49,305 nucleotides of DNA, from IMG/VR virus record IMGVR_UViG_3300025120_000094, positions 1-49,305 of that record. The stretch is one strand, 5' to 3'. The number at the start of each line of letters is the position of its first letter. Position 1 is the first letter of the stretch. This document shows positions 534 to 34,389 of the stretch, one piece after another. The position numbers were made by a program, and so were the translations under genes. Under the pieces are notes generated by a model that searched no databases, had not been told where the DNA came from, and saw only the letters and a program-made list of their open reading frames with translations. This stretch comes from a virus.

Positions 534-1829
534 ATGAAAACAACGATAGTTACAAGAAAGATAGAATTTTATGTTAACGAGTCTGATAAAGATTTAAAAA
601 AACAATTTTATCAAACACTTAGAGACTTTTCGTATTACACCTTTAAACACGCCAATGAGTTAGTTGACACTAACAGAATGGTTGATGTAATTAAAAGAGG
701 TTTTGGTAATTCTAAGAATGAAATTACATCCGAAGAAATGACTGAACAATTATCTGGTATGTTTGGTTGTAAACCAGTTAGCGTACCATACAAGTTTTCA
801 AATCAAGAGTTTAGAGATAAACTACCATCAAATATAAGAGTTGCTCTATCAGCAACTATAAACGCTCTATACGCTAAAGATAGAAGTGATGTAGCCAGGG
901 GTAATCGTACTATTAGGTCATACAAAAATGGTATGCCAGTACCATTTACTAAAACCTCTATAAGACAATTTAAGTTTGATGTAGAAAGAAAAAACTTTAC
1001 CTTTATATTTAACGGTATACCACTAATTACTAGACTTGGAAGAGACAGAAGTAATAATAAATCAATATTAGAATCAATCATAGAAGGTAAGTATCAATTA
1101 TGTGATTCTTCTTTTCAAATTAAAGATGGTAAATTTTTCTTACTATTAGTGCACAAAGTACCAGTTGAAAAGTATAAGTTAAATGAAAAAAGAGTGTTAG
1201 GTATTGATTTAGGTATTAACGTACCATTATATGGTGCTATAAATGATAAGAAAGATAGAATTGCATTAGGTGATAGAGACTCTTTCTTAAACCAAAGACT
1301 TAAATTTCAAAAAAGAAAAAGACAACTACAGAGAGACTTAAAATTAACCAAGGGTGGTAAAGGTAGAGGTAAAAAATTAAAAGCATTAGAAAGTCTTTCA
1401 ACAAAAGAAAGAAACTTTGCTAAAAATTATAACCATAATTTATCTAGAGAAGTAATTAATTTTGCTTTAAAACATAAATGTGGTATTATTAACTTAGAGG
1501 ATTTATCTGGGTTTAAAAAAAATACTAACGACTTTATACTTAGAAACTGGTCATTCTATGAGTTACAAACAATGATTGAGCAGAAAGCTAAGAAAGTTGG
1601 TATTACAGTAAATAAAGTTAAAGCTAAATATACTAGTCAGAGATGTAACAACTGTGGATACATTGATAAAGAAAGTAGAAAATCACAAAGTGAGTTTGAA
1701 TGTACCTCATGTGGTCACGAAGAATCTGCTGACTATAATGCAGCTAAAAACATAAGCATGGCTCATACAAAAGAATTCCAAAAGGAAATTGAGAAACATG
1801 CTAGTTCTTTGAAATTATGTGAAGCGTAA
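534..1829 (+). CDS. TnpB/Cas12f-like RNA-guided RuvC nuclease
   Basis: A 431-aa protein of the TnpB/type V Cas effector family, expected to be an RNA-guided DNA endonuclease. The split RuvC site is complete: GIDLGINVPL with D225 (RuvC-I), IINLEDL with E322 (RuvC-II) and SADYNAAKNI with D400 (RuvC-III). A four-Cys zinc ribbon (C371, C374, C390, C393) lies just before RuvC-III, as in TnpB and Cas12f. A basic segment around residues 250-285 lies between RuvC-I and II, and the first ~215 residues would form the WED/REC-like lobe. The size matches TnpB (~400 aa) and the smallest Cas12f, and is far below Cas12a or CasPhi. It has its own promoter, and a folded RNA and a CRISPR array follow on the same strand, so it is probably the array's effector. 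No tnpA, cas1, cas2 or cas4 is nearby. Family assignment is firm; calling it Cas12f-like rather than plain TnpB is inference from the array. Confidence 0.88.
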   Translation: MKTTIVTRKIEFYVNESDKDLKKQFYQTLRDFSYYTFKHANELVDTNRMVDVIKRGFGNSKNEITSEEMTEQLSGMFGCKPVSVPYKFSNQEFRDKLPSNIRVALSATINALYAKDRSDVARGNRTIRSYKNGMPVPFTKTSIRQFKFDVERKNFTFIFNGIPLITRLGRDRSNNKSILESIIEGKYQLCDSSFQIKDGKFFLLLVHKVPVEKYKLNEKRVLGIDLGINVPLYGAINDKKDRIALGDRDSFLNQRLKFQKRKRQLQRDLKLTKGGKGRGKKLKALESLSTKERNFAKNYNHNLSREVINFALKHKCGIINLEDLSGFKKNTNDFILRNWSFYELQTMIEQKAKKVGITVNKVKAKYTSQRCNNCGYIDKESRKSQSEFECTSCGHEESADYNAAKNISMAHTKEFQKEIEKHASSLKLCEA

Positions 1830-3240: not shown

Positions 3241-5058
3241 ATGGCAAAAAAAATAAATTACTATAGTCGAAACTTCGCAGATGTTAGACAAGAACTTATA
3301 GGCTTTGTAAAACAATACTACCCAGATATATTTAATGATTTTAATGATGCGTCTGTAGGTATGATGTTATTGGAGTTAAATGCTGCAGTAGGTGATATGC
3401 TTTCTTTTCAAACAGACAGAATGTTTCAAGAGACTCAAATTGATTTTGCACAAGAAAGAAGTTCAATACTTTCAATGGCAAGAACATTTGGACTAAAGGT
3501 TCCTGGAAACAGACCATCTATGACTATTGCTGATTTTTCGGTTATAGTACCAGTACTTGGGGACACATTTGATGTTTCATACGCACCAATTGTAAAAAGA
3601 GGTGCTCAAATAAGTGGTGCTGGTAAAGTTTTTGAAACTACAGATGAAATGGATTTTTCATCCCCATTTACAACAGGAGGGTTGCCAAATAGAACAACAA
3701 TCCCAAATTTTGATAATAACGGAAATACAGTAAGTTATACAATAACCAAAAGAGAGATAGTTACTAACGGTGTCACAAAAATATTTAAGAGAGTTCTTAA
3801 CGATGGAGATGTTAAACCATTTCTTGAAATAATTCTACCAGATGATAACGTACTTTCAGTAAACTCAGTAGTAACACTTGAAGGAACTAACTACGTTACA
3901 AGCCCATCAATAGATACATTTTACAATCAAGACCTTAGATGGTACGAAGTAAACGCTTTAGCTGACGACATAGTATTTATCCCAGACGACACAATAGTCA
4001 GTGATAGCTCAACAGTCAAACCTGGTAAATTTAAAAGAGTTGACCAAAGGTTTATAAAGGAATATACTGATAACGGATTTACTAAACTTATTTTTGGTGG
4101 TGGTACACAAGATATAAGTGCATTATGTGAATTTGACGTAGATAAATCACTTGTAAATAGAATAGGTGATTTTATTAATAACTTGTCATTAGGTATCACA
4201 GTTAGTGCAAATAAGACAATGTTTGTATCTTATAGAGTAGGTGGAGGAGCTAATACTAATATAGGTCCAAATACACTTACATCATTAGGTAATATTGATT
4301 TATTTGTAAATGGGTCAAACAGTAGTATTAATCAGTCAGTAAGAGACTCACTTACGGTTAATAATCCATTACCAGCACTAGGCGGTAAAGACGAGCCATC
4401 AGTAGAAGAATTAAGAAATTTAGTGCGATATAATTATTCATCACAAGAAAGATGCGTTACACTAGAAGACTACAAGGTAAGAATAGGACTTATGCCTGGT
4501 GAGTTTGGAGTGCCATTTAGAAATAACATAATAGAAGTCCAAAATAAAATTAGAGTATATACACTAACATTAGACCCTTCAGGTGCTTTAAGTACTAACT
4601 CCACTACCACCCTAAAAAACAATATAACAACATACTTATCAAATTACAGAATGTTAAATGACTATGTTGAAGTATCAAATGGTAAAGTATTTAATTTAGG
4701 GTTTGAAGTTGATTTATTTGTAGATAAACAGTTTTCACAATCCGAAATTGTAGGACAAGTTATAAGTACCATAACTGATTACTTTGACATTAACAAATGG
4801 GATATGGGTGATAATATATATGTATCTCAGTTAATTGAACAAATAAATAACGTAGCTGGTGTATTAAACATTGTAGATTTAAGAATATTTAATAAAGTAG
4901 GTGAGGGTAGATATTCTTCAAATGAAGTTTCACAACCTTATATTGATGATGAAACTAGACAAATAGACTTACTGGGTGAATATACATTATTTGGTGACCC
5001 TATAGGTATGTTTGAAATTAAAACACCATCTAGTGATATTAGAGTTAGAGTAAAATAA
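3241..5058 (+). CDS. Baseplate wedge protein, T4 gp6/baseplate J-like
   Basis: A 605-aa protein of the gp6/gpJ family that forms the inner ring of the baseplate wedges. The N-terminal segment with DFNDASVGMMLLELNAAVGD and the following MFQETQIDFAQERSS segment is the usual hallmark, followed by GLKVPGNRPS. The middle holds beta-rich inserts. Around residues 380-420 an ARNLVRYNYSSQERCVTLEDY-like stretch (here ELRNLVRYNYSSQ and TLEDYKVRIG) matches the conserved core in which successive subunits pack. It lies directly downstream of the gp25-like gene and the two probably share a transcript. Identity as a baseplate J/gp6 protein is confident. Residues 90-330 look lineage-specific. Confidence 0.9.
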   Translation: MAKKINYYSRNFADVRQELIGFVKQYYPDIFNDFNDASVGMMLLELNAAVGDMLSFQTDRMFQETQIDFAQERSSILSMARTFGLKVPGNRPSMTIADFSVIVPVLGDTFDVSYAPIVKRGAQISGAGKVFETTDEMDFSSPFTTGGLPNRTTIPNFDNNGNTVSYTITKREIVTNGVTKIFKRVLNDGDVKPFLEIILPDDNVLSVNSVVTLEGTNYVTSPSIDTFYNQDLRWYEVNALADDIVFIPDDTIVSDSSTVKPGKFKRVDQRFIKEYTDNGFTKLIFGGGTQDISALCEFDVDKSLVNRIGDFINNLSLGITVSANKTMFVSYRVGGGANTNIGPNTLTSLGNIDLFVNGSNSSINQSVRDSLTVNNPLPALGGKDEPSVEELRNLVRYNYSSQERCVTLEDYKVRIGLMPGEFGVPFRNNIIEVQNKIRVYTLTLDPSGALSTNSTTTLKNNITTYLSNYRMLNDYVEVSNGKVFNLGFEVDLFVDKQFSQSEIVGQVISTITDYFDINKWDMGDNIYVSQLIEQINNVAGVLNIVDLRIFNKVGEGRYSSNEVSQPYIDDETRQIDLLGEYTLFGDPIGMFEIKTPSSDIRVRVK

Positions 5059-30820: not shown

Positions 30821-31777
30821 ATGTCTCAAATAATAGCTGATATATTAAAACAATTCTTAGGTGAACCTTACGAACACAATGAGGAAAAGGGTCAAATGTC
30901 ATTTGATTGTCCAGCTTGTGCCGAAGATAAAGGTTTAAGTCATGGTGATGGTAAACACAAATTAGCTATAAACTATAATAAAAATAAGTTTCAGTGTTGG
31001 GTATGTAAGTTTGATAACAACATGCATGGTAATGTACCAACATTAATAAAAAGGTACGGTAATAAAAAAATACTTAAGGAGTATGAAATAGTAAGACCAT
31101 CCACACACGATGTCAGTATACTACCTAAGTACATTAGACCAGATATAGAGCTACCTAAAGGCTTTAAAAAAATATCTGAAAGCAACTATAAAGACTACAA
31201 TTATGGAAATGCTTATAGGTACTTAAGGAATAGAGGTATAGACGATAAACTAATTAAAGAATATAATATAGGATACACTACTGTAGGTAATTACCACAAT
31301 AGAATTATAATACCTTCGTATGATGATTTAGGTGATTTAAATTACTTCATAAGTAGGTCTTGGGATAAATCCAAGAAACCAAAATATCTAAATCCAGATA
31401 TACCAAAACAAGAGTTTATATTTAACGAAAAGACTATTAACTGGGATGGTACAATATATCTAGTTGAAGGGGTATTTGACCATATAGTAGTTCCAAACTC
31501 AATACCTTTATTAGGTAAAATTATGTATCCCAAATTAAAATCAACGTTATTTAATAATGCTAAATCAGATATTGTAATCTTATTAGATGATGACGCTAAA
31601 GATGATGCTATAATGATTTATAAAGACTTAAATATTGGTAAGTTATATAATAGGATAAAAAAATGTACACCACCTACAGATACAGACCCTTCGTTAGTTT
31701 TTGAAAGAGAAGGTAATAAAGGTATAATTAAACTACTTAGGAGTTCAGAAAAAATACTAGAAAGTAAATTATATTAA
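30821..31777 (+). CDS. DNA primase with zinc finger and Toprim domain
   Basis: A 318-aa primase that would make RNA primers for lagging-strand synthesis. The N-terminal zinc finger uses C30, C33, C59 and C62 (FDCPACAED ... FQCWVCKFD). A linker with YRYLRNRGIDDKLIKEYNIGY is typical of DnaG-type primases. The Toprim domain carries E216 in IYLVEGVFDH and the D256-D258 cluster in VILLDDDAKDDA, the metal-binding residues. The protein is shorter than bacterial DnaG (~580 aa) and closer to the phage T4 gp61 class. No helicase domain is fused, so a separate helicase is expected elsewhere in the genome. The stop codon overlaps that of the convergent gene at 31774-32385. Confidence 0.88.
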   Translation: MSQIIADILKQFLGEPYEHNEEKGQMSFDCPACAEDKGLSHGDGKHKLAINYNKNKFQCWVCKFDNNMHGNVPTLIKRYGNKKILKEYEIVRPSTHDVSILPKYIRPDIELPKGFKKISESNYKDYNYGNAYRYLRNRGIDDKLIKEYNIGYTTVGNYHNRIIIPSYDDLGDLNYFISRSWDKSKKPKYLNPDIPKQEFIFNEKTINWDGTIYLVEGVFDHIVVPNSIPLLGKIMYPKLKSTLFNNAKSDIVILLDDDAKDDAIMIYKDLNIGKLYNRIKKCTPPTDTDPSLVFEREGNKGIIKLLRSSEKILESKLY

Positions 31778-32385
31778 GAAGTGCTATACATTCTATCAAA
31801 GAAATTACCAGCCAAGTCTTCCAATTCATTAATAAATTCATAACCAACATCTTCCAAGAACTCATCACCCTCAGCTTTTAATTTTATATATAATGATTTA
31901 TCTGACATTCTAAACTCTGTGTTGTGTGCATTAAAGAATTCTGGGTCACTATCTACACAACCAAAATCTAAACAATCAACATAGTATTTATCATCAGGAG
32001 TCAACTTAACAACATCTATATTAGGGTTAATACCAGAAATAAACTTATTAATAACGTTAATAACACCCTCCCTTGTGTCCCCTTCTCTATCAGTAATAAG
32101 TGGTTTTGGGTATACGTGTTGCATAGCTAGTTCGTGCATAATTGGGCCGTATCCCTTTAGTGCCGCTACTTTATTTACGGAATATCTGCCATTTTCATCA
32201 CGAATAGTTATCGTACCTTTCACACCAAGAGACCTATCACTGTCATCATATTCAACCATATCATATAATACAATAGTATTTCCAGGTAATAAAAACAACC
32301 CAATATCTTCACTAATATTAGATTGGTTAATTGCGACTTCACCTAACAGCGACTCTCTTAGTAACTTCTTTATTAAATTTTTCAT
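31774..32385 (-). CDS. Hypothetical protein, the only reverse-strand gene
   Basis: A 203-aa acidic protein with no family I recognise. It begins MKNLIKKLLRESLLGEV, a short basic amphipathic helix like those at the start of several late proteins in this window, and then becomes acidic and probably globular (VVLYDMVEYDDSDRSLGVKG is approximated by TIVLYDMVEYDDSDRSL). It is transcribed opposite to all its neighbours. Its stop codon overlaps the primase stop by 3 nt, and its start faces the intein-containing nuclease across a 66-bp divergent gap with a candidate late promoter. Expression late in infection, as a head or internal protein, is a possible reading from the N-terminus and promoter only. 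Confidence 0.7.
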   Translation of the reverse strand: MKNLIKKLLRESLLGEVAINQSNISEDIGLFLLPGNTIVLYDMVEYDDSDRSLGVKGTITIRDENGRYSVNKVAALKGYGPIMHELAMQHVYPKPLITDREGDTREGVINVINKFISGINPNIDVVKLTPDDKYYVDCLDFGCVDSDPEFFNAHNTEFRMSDKSLYIKLKAEGDEFLEDVGYEFINELEDLAGNFFDRMYSTS

Positions 32386-32451: not shown

Positions 32452-34389
32452 GTGGATAAAAAAGAAGAACTACTAGCTATTGCGGAAGAGATACGCAACT
32501 TAATTACAGAAAAACAAAAACAATTAGAACTATCCTTTGTAGAAGATGACCACATCTACTATATGAGGGATAAAAACGGTAAAATAAGAAATAACTTTCC
32601 TAGCGTATCTACCGTGATAAAACAATTCTATACAGACTTCCCAGAATTAGATAAATCATTAGAAATGTGCAACAATGATATATTTGCACAGGATGAATTA
32701 TTAAAAGAATGGAGAAGTACCGCAGATTATGCAAACAATAAGGGGTCTAGAGTCCACTACCTACTAGAGACTGACTTATTAAAACAATATGGAGCATACA
32801 AAGAAGTTAGAAAACCTCATTTTGAATGCGACGAAGAGCAAACATCTGACGGTAACGCCATGATTGACGCTGGACATGACTTCATTAGACAAATGCACAG
32901 AAGAGGTGCTATATTATTAGACACTGAAATGGTTTTAGGTAGTTCTGATTTAGAATATACAGGGCAACCAGACAAAATGTGGATTATGTTTGATAAAGAA
33001 GGTAATTTAGGTATTATAATAACAGACTGGAAAGGTTTACCACTAGATACGCCAATATTAACAGATAGCGGCTGGAAAGATATGGGTACTCTAAATAAAT
33101 CTGATAAGGTATATGATAAAGATGGTGACTTAGTTAATATCATGAATATATCAGAAGTTAAAAATAAGAAGTGTCTTAAAATTAAATTCGATAATAACGA
33201 AGAGGTTGTTTCAGATTTTGAACATAGGTGGTTAATTTTCACAAGTGAACGTGGTGTTAAAAAAGAAAGGGTTATGACTACCCAAGAAATTAAAGACTAT
33301 AATGATAATTTAGTTAAAAGGGTTTCATATAAGATATTAAAAATAGATAATCCAAAACCACTTAATAATTCAGATGTAAAATTACCAATAGACCCATATG
33401 TGCTTGGTATATGGTTAGGTGACGGACATAGTATTGACGCTAAGATTACACAAGCTAACGAATCAGTATGGGAAGAAATAAATAAAAGAGGGTATGAAAT
33501 TGGTAAAGATTTATCACAAGGTGGTACTGGTAAAGCGACAACTAGGACTATATTTAACTTACAAGGTAAGTTAAGAGAAACATCTTTATTAAGCGATAAA
33601 CATATACCAGAAATTTACTTATCCAGTTCATATGAGCAAAGGTTAGATTTACTTAGAGGGTTAATGGATAGTGATGGTACATATAATAAAACTAGAAATA
33701 ATTTTGTAATGGAAACCACTAGAGAAGGTCAAGCTGATTACACTGTTGAAATATTATCTTCTTTAGGTATTAAACCCACTAAGAGTTCATTTGATAAGAA
33801 ATTTAACGGTAAAATTATTAAATGTTACAGAACATCGTTCGTAACTAGTGAATTTAACCCATTCTTATCTAGAAATCAAGACCTAGTAATAACCCCAAAG
33901 AAAGATAGAAGAACTTATAGAACTATAGTATCAGTTGAAGAGGTGGAATCAGTACCAACTAAATGTATTGAGGTGGATAGTCCGTCTAGTACATTCTTAT
34001 GTGGTAAATCGTTATTAGTCACTCACAACACAAATAAACCAAAGAATTTTAAGATACAATCATATACCGAGCCAATGCTACCTCCATTTGAAGACCATAT
34101 GGATACAGCACTAAGTCACTACATGATACAACTACCACTTTACGTAAGGCTTTTCGTTGACATGCTTAAGGGTACTAAATACGAAAACATTAAAGTTCTT
34201 GGTGGTATTATCGTACACTTAATGAGTACTGGTAGATTTGATGAATATAGAATACCTAAAACATTTATGAACAGGGTATTAACAATGCCACCATTACCTA
34301 GAATCAAAGGGGTAATGGCTAAGAAAGAAAATGATAAATTAAGAGAACAAAATAGATTAAAAAATTTAAAAAAACAATTAAATGATTAA
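32452..34389 (+). CDS. PD-(D/E)XK nuclease precursor interrupted by an intein
   Basis: A 645-aa precursor. After removal of a 332-residue intein (195-526) it becomes a 313-aa RecB/Cas4-like PD-(D/E)XK nuclease. The active site reads H102 in GSRVHYLLE, D174 in GQPDKMW, then D192-W193-K194, which joins T527-N528-K529 after splicing to give the usual D-W-K-T-N-K motif. A later HYMIQLPLYVRLF segment matches the Q-x-x-x-Y motif of the RecB family. The opening, DDHIYYM with FPSVSTVIKQF, is common in phage members. It starts with GTG at 32452 behind a clear promoter and overlaps the gp47-like gene by 8 nt, so it probably acts in DNA processing or repair with gp46/47. Splicing is needed for activity because the intein splits the catalytic motif. 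Confidence 0.85.
   Translation: MDKKEELLAIAEEIRNLITEKQKQLELSFVEDDHIYYMRDKNGKIRNNFPSVSTVIKQFYTDFPELDKSLEMCNNDIFAQDELLKEWRSTADYANNKGSRVHYLLETDLLKQYGAYKEVRKPHFECDEEQTSDGNAMIDAGHDFIRQMHRRGAILLDTEMVLGSSDLEYTGQPDKMWIMFDKEGNLGIIITDWKGLPLDTPILTDSGWKDMGTLNKSDKVYDKDGDLVNIMNISEVKNKKCLKIKFDNNEEVVSDFEHRWLIFTSERGVKKERVMTTQEIKDYNDNLVKRVSYKILKIDNPKPLNNSDVKLPIDPYVLGIWLGDGHSIDAKITQANESVWEEINKRGYEIGKDLSQGGTGKATTRTIFNLQGKLRETSLLSDKHIPEIYLSSSYEQRLDLLRGLMDSDGTYNKTRNNFVMETTREGQADYTVEILSSLGIKPTKSSFDKKFNGKIIKCYRTSFVTSEFNPFLSRNQDLVITPKKDRRTYRTIVSVEEVESVPTKCIEVDSPSSTFLCGKSLLVTHNTNKPKNFKIQSYTEPMLPPFEDHMDTALSHYMIQLPLYVRLFVDMLKGTKYENIKVLGGIIVHLMSTGRFDEYRIPKTFMNRVLTMPPLPRIKGVMAKKENDKLREQNRLKNLKKQLND
33034..34029 (+). mobile_element. 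Class 3-type intein with LAGLIDADG homing endonuclease
   Basis: The insert covers residues 195-526 of the nuclease. It starts GLPLDTPILTDSGW, with Gly instead of the usual Cys or Ser at position 1, and ends LLVTHN followed by Thr as +1 residue. In block B the expected HxW is present (H258, W260 in FEHRWLIF). In block F a Cys occupies the catalytic position (C505 in TKCIEVDS). In block G a Thr precedes His-Asn (T524). This W-C-T set defines class 3 inteins, which use the block F Cys as first nucleophile and need no residue-1 nucleophile. The central domain has two LAGLIDADG helices, LGIWLGDGH (D324) and LRGLMDSDGTY (D406, D408), so the element should home by cutting intein-free alleles. Confidence 0.85.

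What the first reader, a model, noticed from the sequence alone, without database searches (positions are those of the whole stretch)
33034..34029. Class 3-type intein placed inside a nuclease catalytic motif
The intein starts with Gly, lacks a residue-1 nucleophile, and has the W260-C505-T524 set in blocks B, F and G that defines class 3 inteins, plus Thr at +1. It splits the nuclease exactly between the D-x-K lysine (K194) and the T-N-K that follows, so the enzyme is dead until splicing. Two LAGLIDADG motifs make it mobile. Insertion at an essential motif is typical of homing elements. The Gly1 start and dependence on the block F Cys make splicing chemically unusual.
Basis: partly seen in the sequence, partly recalled or inferred. 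Interest (0 to 1): 0.8.

Follow-up and report, generated by a model that had tools for sequence, protein, structure and literature searches.

The report
Class 3 intein in phage nuclease
A virus of bacteria carries a self-removing protein insert (a class 3 intein with its own homing endonuclease) right after the catalytic lysine of a DNA-cutting enzyme; it is real, probably mobile and probably active, but inteins of this class at this very position were already reported in mycobacteriophages.

Summary
Window 33034-34029 encodes a 332-residue insert in a PD-(D/E)xK exonuclease. Its W66-C311-T330 triplet, block B His64, His331 and Asn332 are invariant in 76 relatives, and the +1 residue is Thr. 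AlphaFold gives a PI-SceI-like Hint + LAGLIDADG fold (pLDDT 93.5) whose splicing domain best matches the class 3 M. smegmatis DnaB intein (Z 20.6, 1.5 A). An intein-free allele with 91-93% identical exteins reads GATTGGAAA|ACC without a scar. Against a second carrier the intein is 89% identical and the exteins only 54-57%, so the intein moves between phages. dN/dS of about 0.18 indicates that it is kept functional. Splicing itself is not shown.
It is a new member of a known kind. Kelley et al. 2016 (PMC5050341) reported class 3 inteins in the PD-(D/E)XK motif of the mycobacteriophage C1 RecB-like exonuclease, and I find that one inserted at the same Lys|Thr bond. Gly1 is not odd here: all 21 inteins of one nuclease-site clade have it. 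The C1 intein falls outside that clade (AU p 0.02), so this bond was probably invaded twice. The Gly1 clade is the only part I did not find described.

The parts
32452..33033 (+). N-extein (194 aa, GTG start): N-terminal part of a RecB/Cas4/MGME1-like PD-(D/E)xK exonuclease, ending in D192-W193-K194
   Evidence: phrog_298 3e-10; 90.7% identical to intein-free allele L019; D192 and K194 invariant in 70 intein-free homologs
32755..32757 (+). His102 of the RecB-type G-x-x-x-H motif of the nuclease
   Evidence: invariant in A5, 70 homologs
32971..32973 (+). Asp174, motif II Asp of the nuclease (G-Q-P-D)
   Evidence: invariant in A5
33025..33033 (+). D192-W193-K194, D-x-K catalytic motif; the intein follows K194 directly
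   Evidence: D and K invariant in 70 intein-free homologs
33034..34029 (+). class 3 intein, 332 aa, Gly1 to Asn332
   Evidence: scarless empty site in L019 and L020
33223..33231 (+). block B His64-x-Trp66 (the W of WCT)
   Evidence: H64 and W66 invariant in 76 inteins
33397..33432 (+). block C, first LAGLIDADG motif (YVLGIWLGDGHS, Asp130)
   Evidence: A1/A2 alignments
33643..33678 (+). block E, second LAGLIDADG motif (LDLLRGLMDSDG, Asp212)
   Evidence: D212 invariant in 76 inteins; Pfam Hom_end/LAGLIDADG_3
33964..33966 (+). block F Cys311, predicted initiating nucleophile (the C of WCT)
   Evidence: invariant in 76 inteins
34021..34029 (+). block G Thr330-His331-Asn332 (the T of WCT, penultimate His, cyclising Asn)
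   Evidence: all three invariant in 76 inteins
34030..34386 (+). C-extein (119 aa) starting with the +1 nucleophile Thr (T527-N-K); carries the Q-x-x-x-Y motif (34129-34143)
   Evidence: 93% identical to L019; +1 position is only Thr or Ser in 70 intein-free homologs; Q228 and Y232 (L019 numbering) invariant

Best explanation
A mobile, full-length class 3 intein (Hint splicing domain plus LAGLIDADG homing endonuclease) sits in the recombination/repair exonuclease gene of a tailed phage, between the catalytic D-x-K lysine and the next Thr. Inferred splicing route: block F Cys311, assisted by His64, Trp66 and Thr330, attacks the K194-G195 bond directly. The N-extein acyl then moves to Thr+1, Asn332 cyclises, and an O-to-N shift restores D-W-K-T-N-K and an active nuclease. 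Inferred spread: the endonuclease cuts the intein-free allele at the conserved codons for DWK|TN and recombination copies the intein in. Shown here: intact motifs, fold, scarless empty alleles, intein/extein discordance, purifying selection. Inferred: splicing, DNA cleavage, and inactivity of the unspliced nuclease.
For: WCT plus His64, His331 and Asn332 invariant in 76 relatives. Fold: PI-SceI-like at Z 26.5, splicing domain closest to class 3 6bs8 at Z 20.6, rmsd 1.5 over 124 residues. Empty site GATTGGAAA|ACC in L019 with exteins 91/93% identical. Intein 89% identical to L001 but exteins 54/57%, with an intein/extein gap in the same direction in L002, L005, L006, L043 and L022. dN/dS 0.18 for window versus L001, 0.14 in the splicing and 0.21 in the HEN part. 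One clade of 21 inteins at the same Lys|Thr bond of diverged PD-(D/E)xK nucleases, support 100/98. Related class 3 phage TerL inteins splice, and BAKA and Bethlehem TerL inteins cut intein-less alleles (PMC5050341).
Against: No splicing or cleavage data for this protein or any member of the Gly1 nuclease clade were found. An A1G change killed trans-splicing of the class 3 AceL NrdHF intein (PMC7891396), so Gly1 needs its own test. The close relative L006 has changed LAGLIDADG motifs (LGDE, MDSGG), so endonuclease decay may occur in this lineage.
Confidence: 0.93

Rival explanations
1. Splicing-competent intein whose endonuclease is no longer active, so that it is now inherited passively.
For: L006, 76% identical, has LGDE and MDSGG in place of LGDG and MDSDG; HEN dN/dS is higher than splicing-domain dN/dS.
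Against: In the window both catalytic-position Asp (130, 212) and the block D Lys189 are kept; HEN dN/dS is still 0.13-0.21; the intein/extein discordance with L001 suggests recent transfer.
Confidence: 0.15
2. Conditional splicing switch: the phage uses slow or redox-sensitive splicing to delay the nuclease, making the intein a regulator rather than a parasite.
For: The insertion is at the catalytic lysine of a DNA-cutting enzyme; class 3 DnaB inteins have been proposed as redox sensors (PMC6195587, title and abstract).
Against: Close relatives do without it (L019, L020 and over 70 others); the horizontal pattern fits a parasite; no conservation tied to one host or phage lineage was seen.
Confidence: 0.06
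3. Permanent extra domain of the nuclease, not spliced out.
For: None beyond the missing experiment; no tool result supports it.
Against: All splicing residues invariant; +1 residue only Thr or Ser; empty alleles scarless; insert incongruent with its host protein.
Confidence: 0.02

Closest known systems
Mycobacteriophage C1 (Bxz1-like) RecB-like exonuclease intein, e.g. MoMoMixon gp212 (L029); class 3, Kelley et al. 2016, PMC5050341
   Same: Class 3 WCT, LAGLIDADG HEN, inserted in a PD-(D/E)XK phage nuclease after the D/E-x-K lysine with +1 Thr (VELK|SLAC...THN|TQN).
   Different: Only 32% identical; starts with Ser, not Gly; lies outside the Gly1 clade (AU p 0.0197), so it is probably a separate invasion of the same bond.
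Gly1 nuclease-site inteins of named phages: Streptomyces phage Frankenweenie gp79 (L023), Pseudomonas phage Rollin (L025), Mycobacterium phage DiMaria_66 (L030), human faecal phage MT835539 (L022)
   Same: Same clade, same D-x-K|G...THN|T junctions, WCT, HEN.
   Different: 32-50% intein identity; very divergent nucleases; annotated only as exonuclease ('Cas4 exonuclease and intron'), RecB-like exonuclease/helicase, hypothetical, or not at all.
Mycobacterium smegmatis/chimaera DnaB class 3 inteins (6bs8, 6rix, 6riy)
   Same: Class 3 active site and Hint fold; nearest solved splicing domain.
   Different: Mini-inteins without endonuclease; in a replicative helicase.
Phage TerL class 3 inteins (phrog_36964, phrog_15; mycobacteriophage TerL1)
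   Same: Same family with HEN; splicing and, for BAKA and Bethlehem, cleavage of intein-less alleles shown for relatives (PMC5050341).
   Different: Usually inserted after a Walker A-like lysine (GK|S/T), mostly Ala1.

Membership tests
Class 3 intein | No Cys/Ser nucleophile at intein residue 1 | tested here: met
   Gly1
Class 3 intein | Trp at B:12, Cys at F:4, Thr at G:5 (WCT) | tested here: met
   W66, C311, T330, aligned and invariant in 76 relatives
Class 3 intein | Block B His, penultimate His, C-terminal Asn, +1 Cys/Ser/Thr | tested here: met
   H64, H331, N332, T+1
Class 3 intein | Hint fold | tested here: met
   AF2 model; 6bs8 Z 20.6, rmsd 1.5 over 124 residues
Class 3 intein | Splices through a block F Cys branched thioester | not testable with these tools
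   Needs expression and mutants
LAGLIDADG homing endonuclease | Two LAGLIDADG motifs with catalytic acidic residues, and the fold | tested here: met
   D130, D212; Pfam Hom_end 1e-5; PI-SceI Z 26.5
LAGLIDADG homing endonuclease | Cuts the intein-free allele | not testable with these tools
   The empty allele exists (L019); cleavage not assayed
RecB/Cas4/MGME1-like PD-(D/E)xK nuclease (extein) | GxxxH, motif II D, D/E-x-K, QxxxY | tested here: met
   G98/H102, D174, D192/K194, Q228/Y232 invariant in 70 homologs
RecB/Cas4/MGME1-like PD-(D/E)xK nuclease (extein) | Fold | tested here: met
   AF2 of intein-free allele L019, pLDDT 95.6; MGME1 Z 13.7, then RecE, AddAB, AdnAB, Dna2, Cas4 at Z about 10
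RecB/Cas4/MGME1-like PD-(D/E)xK nuclease (extein) | Nuclease activity only after splicing | not testable with these tools
   Inference from the position of the insert

The most novel reading that the evidence does not exclude
A distinct, site-dedicated lineage of class 3 inteins with fixed Gly1 has specialised on the catalytic-lysine codon of PD-(D/E)xK phage nucleases and follows that motif across unrelated phages of several bacterial phyla, using an N-junction geometry that differs from Ala1 class 3 inteins, where Gly1 was lethal for splicing in the one case tested.
Probability: 0.3. Interest if true: 0.5.

Novelty: new member of a known kind. Interest (0 to 1): 0.33.

Why it matters
It extends class 3 inteins in nuclease active sites from one mycobacteriophage cluster to a broad clade of phage exonucleases and indicates that the same peptide bond was invaded at least twice. 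The natural Gly1 clade gives a ready test of what class 3 splicing needs at residue 1, and closely related full and empty alleles give a clean homing substrate pair.

Tried and rejected
A permanent-domain reading was rejected by the empty alleles. The idea that Gly1 is exceptional was rejected by the tally (26/85, and 21/21 in the nuclease-site clade). The idea that all nuclease-site inteins are one lineage was rejected at AU p 0.0197 on a 37-row tree; the same test on 80 rows did not finish in two runs. Genome contigs gave no relatives with this query. NCBIfam gave nothing. Pfam does not recognise the nuclease, and a sequence profile of the nuclease finds no convincing PDB relative; only the fold comparison does. 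Tori and Perler 2011 (PMC3133030) is not held. A search for MGME1 catalytic-residue papers found none. No frequency of occupied versus empty sites is claimed, because the search pattern favours empty ones.

Full report
Observation. The window is a whole IMG/VR virus record of 49,305 bases. The insert, 33034-34029, is 332 residues and in frame with both flanks. It is the only place in the record that matches itself.

What it is. The insert matches class 3 DnaB inteins of known structure at E 4e-12 and PHROG terminase families whose members carry inteins at E 6e-34. In an alignment of 76 relatives from viral contigs, His64, Trp66, Cys311, Thr330, His331 and Asn332 are invariant: the WCT triplet plus the block B and G residues used in the published class 3 mechanism (PMC7664689, PMC7891396). 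The AlphaFold2 model (pLDDT 93.5, pTM 0.91) is an intein plus homing endonuclease: PI-SceI Z 26.5 over 319 residues; among splicing domains alone the class 3 M. smegmatis DnaB intein is best, Z 20.6, rmsd 1.5 over 124 residues. Both LAGLIDADG motifs are present with their Asp residues.

The host protein. The window protein and the intein-free alleles match phrog_298 (exonuclease). Over 70 intein-free homologs, G98, H102, D174, D192, K194, Q228 and Y232 are invariant, the RecB/Cas4-type PD-(D/E)xK signature. The model of allele L019 (pLDDT 95.6) is nearest to MGME1 (Z 13.7), then RecE, AddAB, AdnAB, Dna2 and Cas4 nucleases (Z about 10). D192 and K194 lie on the strand 186-194, and the intein sits immediately after that strand. 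The gene lies in a replication and repair cassette: RuvC-like, primase, nuclease, SbcD, SbcC, sigma factor.

Empty sites. L019 has N- and C-exteins 91% and 93% identical to the window but reads ...ACAGATTGGAAA|ACCAATAAA... with no residue added or missing; L020 likewise at lower identity. The +1 position is Thr or Ser in all 70 homologs aligned, so the site itself offers the nucleophile the intein needs.

Mobility and selection. Against L001 the intein is 89% identical (dS 0.37) while the exteins are 54% and 57% identical with much larger dS, so the intein has been transferred more recently than the genes separated. dN/dS of the intein is 0.18 (splicing part 0.14, endonuclease part 0.21), so both parts look maintained. 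L006 shows changed LAGLIDADG motifs, as expected in a homing cycle with decay.

Lineage. In trees of 85 and 37 inteins, 21 inteins that sit at the same Lys|Thr bond of PD-(D/E)xK nucleases form one clade, all starting with Gly (support 100/98 in the careful tree with residue 1 left out). They come from IMG/VR contigs and from phages of Streptomyces, Pseudomonas and Mycobacterium and from human faeces. The intein of mycobacteriophage MoMoMixon gp212, a Bxz1-like (C1) phage, sits at the same bond (VELK|SLAC...THN|TQN) but falls outside the clade; holding all nuclease-site inteins together is rejected at p-AU 0.0197. The simplest reading is two independent invasions of the same bond. The p-value is moderate and rests on one outlier row with a long branch.

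What is known. Kelley et al. 2016 (PMC5050341) describe 40 class 3 inteins in a Cas4/RecB-like exonuclease of C1 mycobacteriophages, inserted in the PD-(D/E)XK motif, and show that related terminase inteins splice and that two of them cut empty alleles. Gly1 does not make the chemistry new, though it is interesting that A1G abolished splicing of another class 3 intein, AceL NrdHF (PMC7891396), while a whole natural clade has Gly1. I found no description of this clade, but only openly licensed papers could be searched.

Verdict. Real, almost certainly a functional mobile class 3 intein, and a new member of a known kind. Splicing, homing and the inactivity of the precursor remain inferences.

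Noticed in passing
window 534-1829 (+): TnpB/IS605 OrfB-like gene (PF07282 2.5e-22, PF01385 3.8e-08) just downstream of ORF 14-433, whose end (YYMRTESVLRGDIAQAAMIDCEACDG) looks like a ribonucleotide reductase C-terminus.
   Followed up: partly
L006:3001-3996 (IMGVR_UViG_3300035034_000546): Close relative of the intein with changed endonuclease motifs (LGDG to LGDE, MDSDG to MDSGG), possibly an endonuclease in decay while the splicing residues are intact.
   Followed up: partly
L029:1498-2490 (Mycobacterium phage MoMoMixon) and L015:2998-4014: Inteins with the WCT set that nevertheless start with Ser (L029) and Cys (L015), i.e. possible mixed class 1/class 3 features; junctions were set by alignment only.
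   Followed up: no
window 31774-32385 (-): 203-aa ORF on the opposite strand between primase and nuclease, no PHROG match.
   Followed up: no
window 3241-5058 (+): Baseplate wedge-like protein, 26-29% identical over its full length to Flavobacterium phage immuto, Microcystis phage Mel-JY01 and uncultured phages: the record is probably from a contractile-tailed phage without a close named relative for this gene.
   Followed up: partly
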